From Candidatus Cloacimonadaceae bacterium (lineage in GTDB: Bacteria > Cloacimonadota > Cloacimonadia > Cloacimonadales > Cloacimonadaceae): 55,681 bases of DNA. Location of the stretch: contig JAUYAR010000037.1 in assembly GCA_030693415.1 (NCBI GenBank), positions 1 through 55,681 on the forward strand. Reading direction: 5' to 3'. The notes under the pieces are model-generated. The model had not been told where the DNA came from and ran no database searches. It saw only the letters and a list, made by a program, of their open reading frames with translations. Every line of letters starts with the position of its first letter. The stretch's first letter is position 1. Both the position numbers and the translations under genes were made by a program. Positions 11,567-55,376 of the stretch are shown in pieces.

Positions 11567-14458
11567 TTAGCCCAATCCTCTCTTCAGATGGGGGAGGCAT
11601 TGCTCCAAATGGACTCCGTGCGACCCTTTGACAAGGATCACGCAGCCGGATTTGATCTCATTTATAATTTCGCTCTCGAGCATTTGGGCGACGTCCGAAA
11701 AGTGCGCACCGCCTCCCAGTTCCGCGTCAAAGTGGTAGGCACGGGATAGATTCCCGACGGTGATCAAGCGGTCAAATTTGTGCTCTGTCAGCATCGCGCC
11801 GATCATGGCATGATAGCTTTCCGAGCCGTTTCCGAGCTCAAGCATGTCCCCCAAGATAGCGAGATGCGGTTTTTCCGGATGCAGAAAGCGCCAAAACTCG
11901 ATTGCTTTTTGCATGGAAAGCGGATTGGCATTATAGCAATCTGCGATCAGAATGCTCTCCCCGATGTGCTCCACTGCCATGCGTAATCCGAGATTCAGAG
12001 GTTGCCCAAGCGCTTTCCTCATCTTCTCTACCGGGATGTGGTGGTGCATGCCCAGAGCGATTGCATAGGCTGCATTTCCGATGAAATGAGGGAAGGGATA
12101 GGAAAGGGAAAAATCGCTTCCGTTCAGTTTGAAAGAGATCGATTCCTCAGCGCGCTCGATATCGGTGATCCGAAAATCCGCGTCTTCACAGTATCCAACC
12201 CCCTTGCCCTTTGCCTTGTATTCCGCGAATCTGGGATCGTCGGCGTCAAAAAGCCGCAGATCGAGTGGACGCTCAAAGAGAGCGGTTTTTTCACGATAGA
12301 CCCCGTCTTCATCGATCAAAGTTTCCAGGTGCGAGGGACCGATATTGACGATGATTCCGCAATCAGGCAATATGATGTCTGCCATGACTTTGATTTCGCC
12401 GAAGTGATTGGTGCCAATCTCAAATACTGCATAGTTATGCTCGGGTTTGATCCTCCTGATGGTGTTGCAGAGCCCCATCAGGTTGTTTTCGTTTGCCAGA
12501 TTTTTCAAAGTGGGCTTGTGGCTGCCAAGTATCTGCCCGACAAATTCTTTGCAGCTCGTCTTGCCGGTGCTGCCGGTGATGGCGATCTTGTAGGGATCGA
12601 ACATCAACAGGTATTTCTGGCAGAGGGCGGCAAGGCAATTCATCGTAGAGTCTGTCCATTTAATTGAGAATTGAGAATCGAGAATTGAGGATTGAGAATT
12701 GAGCATTGAGAATTGATGATTCTCCATTCTTTGTTCTCGCACCACGAGGTTTGCCGGGTCTTTGAGCACATTGCCGATATAGTGATGTCCGTCAAAGCGT
12801 TCGCCCTTGACAGCGAAGAATACGGATCCGGATCTGATTGTGCGGCTGTCTGTGGATAGATAATGATATAGTTTCGGCTCTTTGTAGCCGCGTGGGTTTT
12901 CGATTGACATATTGCCGCATAGGATATCGAGCATCAGTCCGTCGATGGGGATCACGAGCTTGTCGTCATCTTCCATCAGAGTTTCATCGCTTTGAGAAAG
13001 GATCGCTCTCACTACCTCGTGGTCATCAAACACTTGCTTGACGCCCTCGATCTCCTGATAGGTCTCGTGTCCTTTTCCGCAGATTAGAACTATGTCCCCC
13101 GGTTTTGATAGCCGCAAGATGCTCCTGATCGCTTCCCGCCGGTCTCTCACGATCCACCAGGGCAGGCAGGCATGGGCTCCGCTGGTGATGTCCAGGATAA
13201 TGGCATCCGGGTTTTCGCCTCTGGGGTTATCGTCACTGATGATCACGGCATCGCTGTTTTTGAGAGCCGTTTGAAGCATCAGCGGGCGTTTGCCTTTGTC
13301 TCGATCTCCGCCTGCGCCGATCAAAGTGAGGATTCTACGGTTAGCAAGGTCCCTGCAGGTTTTGAGCACGTTTTCGATCGCGTCCGGAGTGTGGGCATAA
13401 TCTATGAAGATGCCGATGCCGCGGTCATTTGGTATAAGCTCAAATCTGCCGCGCACGGGCTCGATATCTTTGATGCTTGCGGAAATCTGCTTTGTTTCAA
13501 ATCCCATGAGACTCAAGGTCGCAGCCGCCAATGCGAGGTTGTTTACATTGAAGTTTCCCAGCAAGCGGGATTCGATATTGATCTCGCCTTCTCGGGTTTG
13601 CAGGCTGAAACTACTGCGCTCGAAGCCGGTTTCCACATCCTTTACCACGAAATTGGCGTCGGCATGACCCAGCGAGAACGAATAAGCGCCCGCTTGGATG
13701 AGCCGAGTGTGGATGGTTTTACCAAAGGGATCGTCGATATTGATGAGCGAAACAGCTTGTTTCCGCTTCGAAGTATCGAAGAGCTTGAACTTCGCCGCGC
13801 CATATTCTTCCATGTTGGCATGAAAATCCAGATGGTCACGGCTAAGATTGCTAAACAAGCAATAATCAAATTCCACGCCGTAAACGCGATCCAGCGCCAG
13901 GGCGTGTGAGGAAACCTCCATAATCACATAACTGAGCTCGGCTTTTGCCATGCGGGCAAAAATTGAATTCAACTCGATGCTGTCGGGAGTGGTGTGATCG
14001 GTTTTATATATTTCGTCGTTGATCTGATAACCGAGGGTGCCGATCAGTCCGGCTTTAATCCCCATGCTTCTGAGGGCTTTGAAAAGGATGATCGAAGTCG
14101 TCGTCTTACCGTTGGTTCCGGTGATTCCCACGAGGCGGAAATTGCTTACCGGATTTCTGTAATATAGCTTTGCGGCAAGCGCGGCGGCTTTGCGGGAGTC
14201 ACTCACTCGGATGGATGGAAGCTCGTCGTTGGATTCGGTTTCGCGGATGATCAGAGACGCGCCTTTGGCACTGGCGGCTTCGATAAAGTCATGCCCGTCA
14301 TGGCTGAAACCCTTGATGCAGATAAAGATATCACCCTTTGATAACAGACGGTTGTCCGTAATCGGAGCGCCTTCGATCCGGGTGAGGTCATCAATGCCCT
14401 TGCTTTCTATAAAAAGCCCATGTTCTTGCAGGATCTTGATCAAATCCCCGATCTTCAT
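11567..14458 (-). CDS. murEF: MurE-MurF fusion (UDP-MurNAc-tripeptide synthetase / tripeptide D-Ala-D-Ala ligase)
   Basis: A 963-residue two-enzyme fusion replacing separate murE and murF genes. MurE half (1 to about 490): P-loop GTNGKTTT (114-121), DNPR at about 410-413, the mark of meso-diaminopimelate-specific enzymes, and GKGHE near 461. MurF half (about 500 to 963): N-terminal STDSRTIRSGSVFFAVKGERFDG and P-loop GSTGKTS (629-635). Between the MurF substrate domain and its P-loop, residues about 578-600 are encoded by a tandem heptamer array. MurE-MurF fusions are known in a few bacteria. The start overlaps the ftsI stop by 4 bases. Confidence 0.96.
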   Translation of the reverse strand: MKIGDLIKILQEHGLFIESKGIDDLTRIEGAPITDNRLLSKGDIFICIKGFSHDGHDFIEAASAKGASLIIRETESNDELPSIRVSDSRKAAALAAKLYYRNPVSNFRLVGITGTNGKTTTSIILFKALRSMGIKAGLIGTLGYQINDEIYKTDHTTPDSIELNSIFARMAKAELSYVIMEVSSHALALDRVYGVEFDYCLFSNLSRDHLDFHANMEEYGAAKFKLFDTSKRKQAVSLINIDDPFGKTIHTRLIQAGAYSFSLGHADANFVVKDVETGFERSSFSLQTREGEINIESRLLGNFNVNNLALAAATLSLMGFETKQISASIKDIEPVRGRFELIPNDRGIGIFIDYAHTPDAIENVLKTCRDLANRRILTLIGAGGDRDKGKRPLMLQTALKNSDAVIISDDNPRGENPDAIILDITSGAHACLPWWIVRDRREAIRSILRLSKPGDIVLICGKGHETYQEIEGVKQVFDDHEVVRAILSQSDETLMEDDDKLVIPIDGLMLDILCGNMSIENPRGYKEPKLYHYLSTDSRTIRSGSVFFAVKGERFDGHHYIGNVLKDPANLVVREQRMENHQFSMLNSQSSILDSQFSIKWTDSTMNCLAALCQKYLLMFDPYKIAITGSTGKTSCKEFVGQILGSHKPTLKNLANENNLMGLCNTIRRIKPEHNYAVFEIGTNHFGEIKVMADIILPDCGIIVNIGPSHLETLIDEDGVYREKTALFERPLDLRLFDADDPRFAEYKAKGKGVGYCEDADFRITDIERAEESISFKLNGSDFSLSYPFPHFIGNAAYAIALGMHHHIPVEKMRKALGQPLNLGLRMAVEHIGESILIADCYNANPLSMQKAIEFWRFLHPEKPHLAILGDMLELGNGSESYHAMIGAMLTEHKFDRLITVGNLSRAYHFDAELGGGAHFSDVAQMLESEIINEIKSGCVILVKGSHGVHLEQCLPHLKRGLG
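12663..12718. repeat. Eight tandem ATTGAGA heptamers inside the murF half of murEF
   Basis: Eight consecutive 7-base units, consensus ATTGAGA: units 1, 2, 5 and 7 are perfect; units 3, 4, 6 and 8 differ by one or two bases. They are read on the minus strand as serine/asparagine/glutamine-rich residues (about 582-600 of MurEF). Seven is not a multiple of three, so only changes of three units keep the reading frame. Confidence 0.95.
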
Positions 14459-23029: not shown

Positions 23030-23141
23030 GGCAGATCCTTCATGGGTATCAATTATTCTTTAAATGGGAGGAAATTAGGGAGGGGGATATTTGTCAACCA
23101 CAAAGTTCAAACAATGTTGTTTTTGTGGGTAAAAGATGTAG

Positions 23142-23161
23142 CGCAGCATGCCGATGCTGCG
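23142..23161. repeat. REP-like hairpin, family B, copy 1
   Basis: CGCAGCAT-GCCG-ATGCTGCG, 8-base-pair perfect stem with a 4-base loop, preceded by GTAG. The inverted copy with the same GTAG context lies at 32787-32806; a relative lies at 43196-43215. It sits between the divergent subtilisin and TetR genes. Confidence 0.8.
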
Positions 23162-23163
23162 AA

Positions 23164-23217
23164 GGTGGAAAGGTGGAACGCCGAATCTCATCTCTCTCCT
23201 CTTCCACCTTTCCATCC
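23164..23217. repeat. Dispersed inverted-repeat element, family C, copy 1
   Basis: Arms GGAAAGGTGGAA (23167-23178) and TTCCACCTTTCC (23202-23213), exact over 12 bases, enclose a GAGAGATGAGATTC-type centre on the minus strand. A diverged copy, with GAGATGGGTT in the centre and one decayed arm, is at 55319-55376. Confidence 0.65.
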
Positions 23218-32786: not shown

Positions 32787-32806
32787 CGCAGCATCGGCAT
32801 GCTGCG
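32787..32806. repeat. REP-like hairpin, family B, copy 2
   Basis: CGCAGCAT-CGGC-ATGCTGCG followed by CTAC: the exact reverse complement of the element at 23142-23161 including its GTAG flank. Confidence 0.8.
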
Positions 32807-32817
32807 CTACTACTTGA

Positions 32818-32905
32818 CAGCGTTAATCAAGCCTTAATCAAGCGTTAATCAAGCGTAATAAAACTAACGCTTGATTAACGCTTGATTAAGGCTTGATTGA
32901 CGCTG
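32818..32905. repeat. 39-base near-perfect inverted repeat built from TTAATCAAGC units
   Basis: Arms 32818-32856 and 32867-32905 differ at one position (a G-U pair in RNA) and enclose AATAAAACTA. Each arm is itself three direct repeats of about 11 bases, (G)TTAATCAAGC. The structure would extrude as a large cruciform or form a 39-base-pair RNA hairpin. No T run follows. Confidence 0.93.
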
Positions 32906-33047
32906 TGGGACGGTGAGGGATAGTGCAGCATGAACTGATCTGTTAACTGGTGATCTGTGCACTGGTGATCAATGAACGGGTGAACGGGTGAACTCGCTAA
33001 AAGCGCAGAAAGCTGATTTTGCCTATTTGATCAAATCATTCGCGGTC

Positions 33048-55318: not shown

Positions 55319-55376
55319 TGTGGAAAATATGGAAGATGAGAGATGGGTTAAGGTGCAACCCTTCCACCTTTCCACC
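55319..55376. repeat. Dispersed inverted-repeat element, family C, copy 2
   Basis: Diverged copy of the element at 23164-23217 in opposite orientation: TGGAAA..ATGGAAGATGAGAGATG, then CCCTTCCACCTTTCCACC. The left arm has lost three of twelve matching bases. Confidence 0.6.

What the first reader, a model, noticed from the sequence alone, without database searches (positions are those of the whole stretch)
12663..12718. Heptamer array inside an essential cell-wall gene fusion
Eight ATTGAGA units lie in frame between the MurF substrate domain and its P-loop. Slippage by one or two units would shift the frame of an essential enzyme; changes by three units would not. This is either a tolerated linker expansion or a slippage-prone site affecting MurF. 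The array interrupts a domain junction that is normally short.
Basis: partly seen in the sequence, partly recalled or inferred. Interest (0 to 1): 0.7.

Follow-up and report, generated by a model that had tools for sequence, protein, structure and literature searches.

The report
Mobile-element repeat footprint inside murF
The seven-letter repeat inside this cell-wall gene is one of about 35 copies of a genome-wide repeat, and the same repeat forms the two mirror-image arms around a small gene of unknown function; across several bacterial phyla such genes carry arms of this kind, which suggests an overlooked type of genetic element behind many of the mysterious short repeats in bacteria.

Summary
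The array is real: eight AATTGAG units (12662-12717, four perfect) in frame inside a MurE-MurF fusion of a Candidatus Cloacimonadota genome, followed by about three decayed units in inverted orientation. None of 31 related MurEF proteins has it. It encodes a disordered loop of the MurF N-domain, about 35 residues before the P-loop, in the only orientation free of stops. Gain or loss of one or two units would truncate MurF; nothing shows that slippage occurs.

It is not a murF feature. The same heptamer forms about 35 arrays in this genome, many at gene boundaries of a prophage. One inverted pair encloses a four-helix-bundle gene (TIGR02436/PF05635, the 'S23p' of 23S rRNA intervening sequences). 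This is general: 45 of 59 such genes in Cloacimonadota have 6-9-bp arrays within 200 bp (controls 0.5-3%), mostly inverted pairs of equal period. Complete cyanobacterial plasmids show the same. The unit follows the protein's sequence (permutation p = 5e-5), and ORF-less arrays concentrate in genomes holding the cognate gene. One orthologous site is occupied by different gene-arm combinations, or empty, in seven sister species.

Best reading: the murF array is an ORF-less footprint of such an element. How the elements spread is not shown.

The parts
12662..12717 (+). Array of eight AATTGAG heptamers, four perfect (read TTCTCAA on the murF coding strand)
12718..12738 (-). About three degenerate heptamers in inverted orientation (GATTCTC CATTCTT TGTTCTC), the second arm of the inverted pair
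   Evidence: 16/21 matches to the periodic reverse-complement unit; 2 of 111,078 windows as good
11567..14458 (-). MurE-MurF fusion gene, 963 aa
   Evidence: fusion conserved across the order
12674..12727 (-). Codons 578-595: the loop encoded by the arrays, predicted disordered
   Evidence: AlphaFold2 model, pLDDT below 50 at MurF residues 84-101; absent in 31 relatives
12557..12574 (-). MurF P-loop codons (GSTGKT, residues 629-634), intact
   Evidence: alignment

Best explanation
The murF array is an ORF-less copy (footprint) of a dispersed AATTGAG repeat family. The same repeat forms the inverted arms of a small element that carries a four-helix-bundle gene of the S23p/IVP family (contig C179 of this genome). 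Shown here: the element layout (array - gene - inverted array of equal period), its recurrence in many genomes, the match between repeat unit and protein clade, the concentration of solo arrays in genomes with the cognate gene, and presence/absence at an orthologous site. Inferred: the element or its arms move, probably into transcribed spacers; arms then lengthen or shorten by slippage and can lose the gene. In murF an inverted pair landed in a surface loop and survived because the coding strand reads TTCTCAA, which has no stop in any frame, and because its net length kept the frame. The molecular mechanism of spread is unknown. The lead is that the protein acts on its own array as DNA, or as the RNA stem that the arms form.
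For: Genome-wide family: 117 + 107 exact hits of three units, 0 for the reversed control; about 35 arrays read. C179: inverted arrays enclose a TIGR02436 gene, and the RNA folds at -246.7 kcal/mol against -139 +/- 9 in shuffles. Generality: of 58 PF05635 genes with both 200-bp flanks, 39 have an array on the left, 41 on the right, 35 on both; all 35 have equal period, 29 are inverted, 6 direct; control tiles 5/1024. In a random 400 kb of a single-contig genome 67/2000 tiles have an array and 1 of 51 short ORFs has arrays on both sides. Other phyla: 12 of 27 genes with an array, controls 9/1755. Complete plasmids of cyanobacteria and Riemerella: 7 of 10 above threshold. Cognate units: identity of 80% or more gives the same unit in 4/4 pairs, below 35% none; permutation p = 5e-5. 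GGTGGAAA arrays occur only in the two of 37 genomes whose IVP gene carries that unit, and likewise AGGTGTT. Occupied, re-occupied and empty site in one genus. Literature: heptamers of strain-variable number precede the S23p ORF in the Coxiella IVS (PMC4990558).
Against: Movement was never observed. No target-site duplication or precise insertion boundary could be defined, because the nearest relatives of this genome are only about 55% identical in MurEF. Most solo arrays have no IVP gene nearby, and two genomes with AATTGAG arrays have no detected IVP gene (G042, G050). In G009 43 of 67 dispersed arrays match no IVP unit of that genome. Fourteen of 59 IVP genes show no array above threshold. 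The RNA fold of the murF array alone is no better than shuffles.
Confidence: 0.66

Rival explanations
1. Heptamer arrays arise and spread by themselves (replication slippage, recombination, gene conversion), and IVP elements prefer to insert into arrays that already exist.
For: Solo arrays far outnumber IVP genes, and many dispersed units have no IVP gene in the same genome. The over-representation of heptamers in bacteria has been ascribed to polymerase slippage (PMC4692102).
Against: The two arms are mostly inverted and always of equal period; arm units follow the protein clade between genomes; at the orthologous site of one genus the empty spacer has no array (G033).
Confidence: 0.2
2. The murF array is a contingency (phase-variation) locus in which slippage switches MurF on and off.
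For: Unit changes of +/-1 or +/-2 truncate MurF.
Against: Half of the units are imperfect, the gene is essential and single-copy, the repeat is genome-wide and mostly intergenic, and the insert is absent in relatives.
Confidence: 0.04
3. The arrays are added by a telomerase-like or retron-like reverse transcriptase.
For: Very pure arrays of one unit at many loci; the IVP fold is related to Avd, the partner protein of diversity-generating reverse transcriptases (family knowledge; weak PF05635 hits lie next to RT genes).
Against: G006 has 30 hits of the repeat but no RT found (74% complete); G008, G010, G013 and G041 hold IVP genes but no RT; RT-adjacent Avd-like genes lack arrays above threshold.
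Confidence: 0.06
4. The arrays, including the one in murF, are assembly artefacts of a metagenome-assembled genome.
For: Several contigs end inside arrays.
Against: The murF array sits in the middle of a 55-kb contig in an intact frame; the same architecture occurs in a single-contig genome (G009) and in complete isolate plasmids.
Confidence: 0.03

Closest known systems
23S rRNA intervening sequences (IVS) with an S23p ORF (Coxiella, Leptospira; PMC4990558)
   Same: Same protein family; ORF inside a stem made by inverted repeats; in Coxiella tandem heptamers (GACAGAT) of strain-variable number precede the ORF
   Different: Here the elements lie between protein genes, the arms are short-tandem arrays on both sides, the unit is specific to the protein clade, and ORF-less arrays are scattered through the genome. 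RNase III excision not tested.
Intergenic heptamer repeats: TAACTGA in Beggiatoaceae, cyanobacteria and Bacteroidetes (PMC4679880); GGGAATC and GGGGATT in Xanthomonas and Nostoc (PMC4692102)
   Same: Dispersed, mostly intergenic heptamer arrays; within ORFs mainly in stop-free orientation, with an example in murG; 70 inverted pairs reported in Xanthomonas campestris
   Different: The passages and sections read there propose no link to a gene family (PMC4692102 generally found no association with mobile elements); here the arrays form the arms of four-helix-bundle genes
REP sequences with RAYT transposases; MITEs such as BrickBuilt (PMC4596501)
   Same: A protein gene flanked by repeats that also occur alone throughout the genome
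   Different: REPs are palindromes mobilised by an HUH (Y1) transposase; here tandem 6-9-mers and a four-helix-bundle protein with no known nuclease activity
Diversity-generating retroelements (Avd protein)
   Same: Related four-helix-bundle protein, weak match to PF05635
   Different: Avd-like genes next to an RT lack flanking arrays above threshold

Membership tests
S23p/IVP four-helix-bundle protein (TIGR02436, PF05635): gene enclosed by AATTGAG arrays in this genome | Match above the curated cut-off | tested here: met
   TIGR02436 109.7 bits, cut-off 24; PF05635 E 3.9e-26; solved homologue 2rld, E 2.5e-37
23S rRNA intervening sequence | Located inside a 23S rRNA gene | tested here: not met
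   Flanked by protein genes; no Rfam match in L181, L192, L016
23S rRNA intervening sequence | Inverted repeats forming a stem around the ORF | tested here: met
   C179 element: long stem, z = -12; 29 of 35 array pairs inverted
23S rRNA intervening sequence | Excision from the transcript by RNase III | not testable with these tools
   needs RNA data
AATTGAG repeat family of this genome (murF array) | Same unit in tandem, as in the other arrays and the C179 arms | tested here: met
   Sequence model E 2.7e-13, among the better hits of the genome; this array was one of nine used to build the model, so the score is partly circular; unit identity is direct
AATTGAG repeat family of this genome (murF array) | Inverted partner array | tested here: met
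   Three degenerate inverted units at 12718-12738
REP/RAYT | HUH (Y1) transposase gene plus palindromic unit | tested here: not met
   PF05635 protein and tandem units; separate REP-like palindromes do occur beside some arrays
Phase-variable contingency locus | Pure repeats whose number varies between cells or strains | tested here: inconclusive
   4 of 8 units imperfect; no reads or strains available
MITE | Target-site duplication at the insertion | tested here: inconclusive
   relatives too divergent at murF to define the boundaries

The most novel reading that the evidence does not exclude
Four-helix-bundle (S23p/IVP) proteins and cognate 6-9-bp tandem arrays together form a widespread and so far undescribed class of mobile element. 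Each protein clade recognises and propagates its own repeat unit, as a RAYT does for its REP, and its ORF-less arrays account for a large part of the unexplained heptamer repeats of Cloacimonadota, cyanobacteria, Bacteroidota and perhaps Xanthomonas. The murF insertion would be a domesticated footprint of such an element in an essential enzyme.
Probability: 0.45. Interest if true: 0.9.

Novelty: new variant of a known kind. Interest (0 to 1): 0.74.

Why it matters
Short tandem heptamers in bacterial spacers have been reported in several lineages without an accepted origin, and S23p/IVP proteins have been described as of no known function. The data tie the two together: each IVP clade carries its own repeat unit as arms, solo copies of a unit concentrate where the cognate gene is present, and one spacer site is empty, filled or refilled in sister species. 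That makes both questions testable in culturable bacteria such as Nostoc. For murF it shows how repeat DNA can add a loop to an essential single-copy enzyme when orientation (stop-free strand) and net length allow.

Tried and rejected
Slippage switch in murF: frame arithmetic confirmed but no evidence of variation; rejected as the main explanation. Reverse transcriptase (telomerase-like) origin: RT presence does not follow the arrays. RAYT (PF01797): a fragment that I read by eye as a RAYT C-terminus lies between inverted arrays at C7, but Y1 genes are found in 42 of 61 genomes against 12 of 61 with the repeat; not pursued. Hairpin in the murF mRNA: fold no better than shuffles. Defence system: no PADLOC match for three IVP proteins. 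Known RNA family: none. Papers quoting the repeat sequence: only unrelated matches; the combination S23/IVS/heptamer brought up one relevant paper, the Coxiella IVS. Second empty-site test with L193: the flanking gene is not conserved in the genus, so uninformative. Viral contigs with the array: no IVP gene in the stretches held. A first count of the other-phyla loci missed minus-strand genes; it was redone on both strands.

Full report
1. The observation. The array at 12662-12717 is real and is the strongest period-7 signal of the window. It has eight AATTGAG units, four of them perfect, lies in frame in a 963-aa MurE-MurF fusion on the minus strand, and reads TTCTCAA on the coding strand, a sequence without stops in any frame; the opposite orientation has a stop in every frame. 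Immediately beyond it lie about three degenerate units in inverted orientation (12718-12738; 16 of 21 positions; 2 of 111,078 windows as good). Adding or removing one or two units truncates MurF within about 30 codons; three units keep the frame.

2. The protein. The organism belongs to Candidatus Cloacimonadota: its closest MurEF proteins, 55-58% identical, come from that phylum. The fusion is found throughout the order. None of 31 related MurEF proteins has the insert, which is about 18 residues net. In an AlphaFold2 model (mean pLDDT 88.5, MurF fold, best PDB match 4qf5, TM 0.83) the insert is the one long disordered loop of the folded core, between two strands of the N-domain about 35 residues before the P-loop. 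The invariant MurF residues are intact, and the search found no second MurEF copy in a 99.8% complete genome. The insertion is a tolerated loop, not a broken gene. No reads or sister strains were available, so slippage itself is untested.

3. A genome-wide family. Three tandem units match 117 + 107 times in this genome and 0 times for the reversed control pattern. About 35 arrays were read in full: in spacers, at many gene boundaries of a prophage (terminase, portal, tape measure), and in mixtures with an 8-mer (GGTGGAAA), another 8-mer (GGTGAACG) and REP-like hairpins. Twelve of 61 relatives from several families carry the same heptamer.

4. The link to four-helix-bundle genes. On contig C179 inverted AATTGAG arrays enclose a gene of the S23p/IVP family (TIGR02436, PF05635), and the transcript folds into a long stem around it. 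A search for PF05635 in 37 genomes showed that this is the rule: 45 of 59 genes have a 6-9-bp tandem array within 200 bp. Of the 58 with both flanks, 35 have arrays on both sides, all 35 with the same period, 29 inverted and 6 direct. Controls from the same genomes give 5 of 1024 tiles; a random 400 kb of the single-contig genome G009 gives 67 of 2000 tiles and 1 of 51 short ORFs with arrays on both sides. RT-adjacent Avd-like relatives lack arrays above threshold. Most elements sit between two genes pointing the same way as the IVP gene (33 of 36).

5. Unit and protein go together. Between genomes, IVP proteins 80% or more identical share the unit in 4 of 4 pairs, 65-80% in 57%, 55-65% in 38%, below 35% in none; permutation p = 5e-5. 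The AATTGAG genes of three genera form one clade at 61-66% identity. GGTGGAAA arrays occur in only two of 37 genomes, the two whose IVP gene has that unit; AGGTGTT arrays in only two, again the right two. Part of each count is the arms themselves, but both units also occur on other contigs or kilobases away. In G009, 24 of 67 dispersed arrays match units of its own IVP genes, the highest count among 26 genomes' unit sets, although 43 do not match.

6. One site, seven sister species. Downstream of the same conserved gene in one genus, G009 and G015 have the same IVP gene with GAGGTCGA-type arms; G029 has a different gene (45% identical) with GATGGCGA-type arms; G025 and G036 have further combinations; G021 has inverted ATGGAC-type arms without the gene; G033 has a short spacer with neither. 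Gene and arms come and go together.

7. Beyond this phylum. Twelve of 27 IVP genes in genomes of other groups have an array (controls 9 of 1755). On ten complete plasmids (nine cyanobacterial, one Riemerella) seven IVP genes pass the threshold and two more show weak arms, for example AGTAGGG and its complement in Nostoc edaphicum. In a Picosynechococcus plasmid the element lies between cas10 and a cmr3-family gene. This excludes a metagenome-assembly artefact as the general explanation. In the Coxiella 23S rRNA IVS, tandem heptamers of strain-variable number precede the S23p ORF (PMC4990558), an independent report of the same association.

8. Interpretation. Shown: architecture, association, cognate units, site polymorphism. 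Inferred: that the elements are mobile, that ORF-less arrays derive from them, and that the murF array is such a footprint, supported by its unit and its inverted half. Not shown: any movement, the direction of causality for every array, or the biochemical role of the protein. The main rival is that arrays spread on their own and IVP elements are drawn to them.

9. Novelty. Heptamer repeats, S23p proteins and rRNA intervening sequences are all known. I found no report that joins short-tandem arms, cognate units and dispersed solo copies into one element, but only open-access text was searchable. I file it as a new variant of the S23p/IVS kind and leave open that it is a class of its own.

Noticed in passing
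window 23139-23178: REP-like palindrome with a GTAG start (GTAGCGCAGCATGCCGATGCTGCG) directly followed by two units of the 8-mer AAGGTGGA, the unit that flanks the IVP gene on contig C2 (L201).
   Followed up: partly
window 32787-32993: REP-like palindrome, then inverted arrays of an 11-mer (AGCGTTAATCA / TAACGCTTGAT) 8 bp apart, then a 15-mer and an 8-mer (TGAACGGG) array: apparently another ORF-less inverted pair in this window.
   Followed up: no
window 55358-55376: Short array of the 8-mer CCACCTTT/ACCCTTCC, the second dispersed unit of this genome.
   Followed up: partly
L013 (G000:C87) and L015 (G000:C126): A prophage split over contigs carries long pure AATTGAG arrays (7-21 units) at many of its gene boundaries; both contigs end in arrays.
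   Followed up: partly
L009 15877-16615 (G000:C7): Inverted AATTGAG arrays enclose a hairpin-rich 327-bp stretch; part of it, read by eye, resembles the C-terminus of a RAYT transposase.
   Followed up: no
L177 7796-7923 (G000:C145): An array overlaps the 3' end of a 573-aa ORF, so the repeat supplies its last codons and stop.
   Followed up: no
L316 (Picosynechococcus sp. PCC 7003 plasmid NZ_CP016476): A four-helix-bundle gene with inverted 8-mer arms sits between cas10 and a cmr3-family gene of a type III-B CRISPR locus.
   Followed up: partly
L250-L269 (G009 random sample): Other abundant dispersed arrays (8-mer AAAGAGAA, 9-mer CACAGATTA, 7-mer AGTTCAA) have no matching IVP gene in the genome; owners, if any, unknown.
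   Followed up: partly
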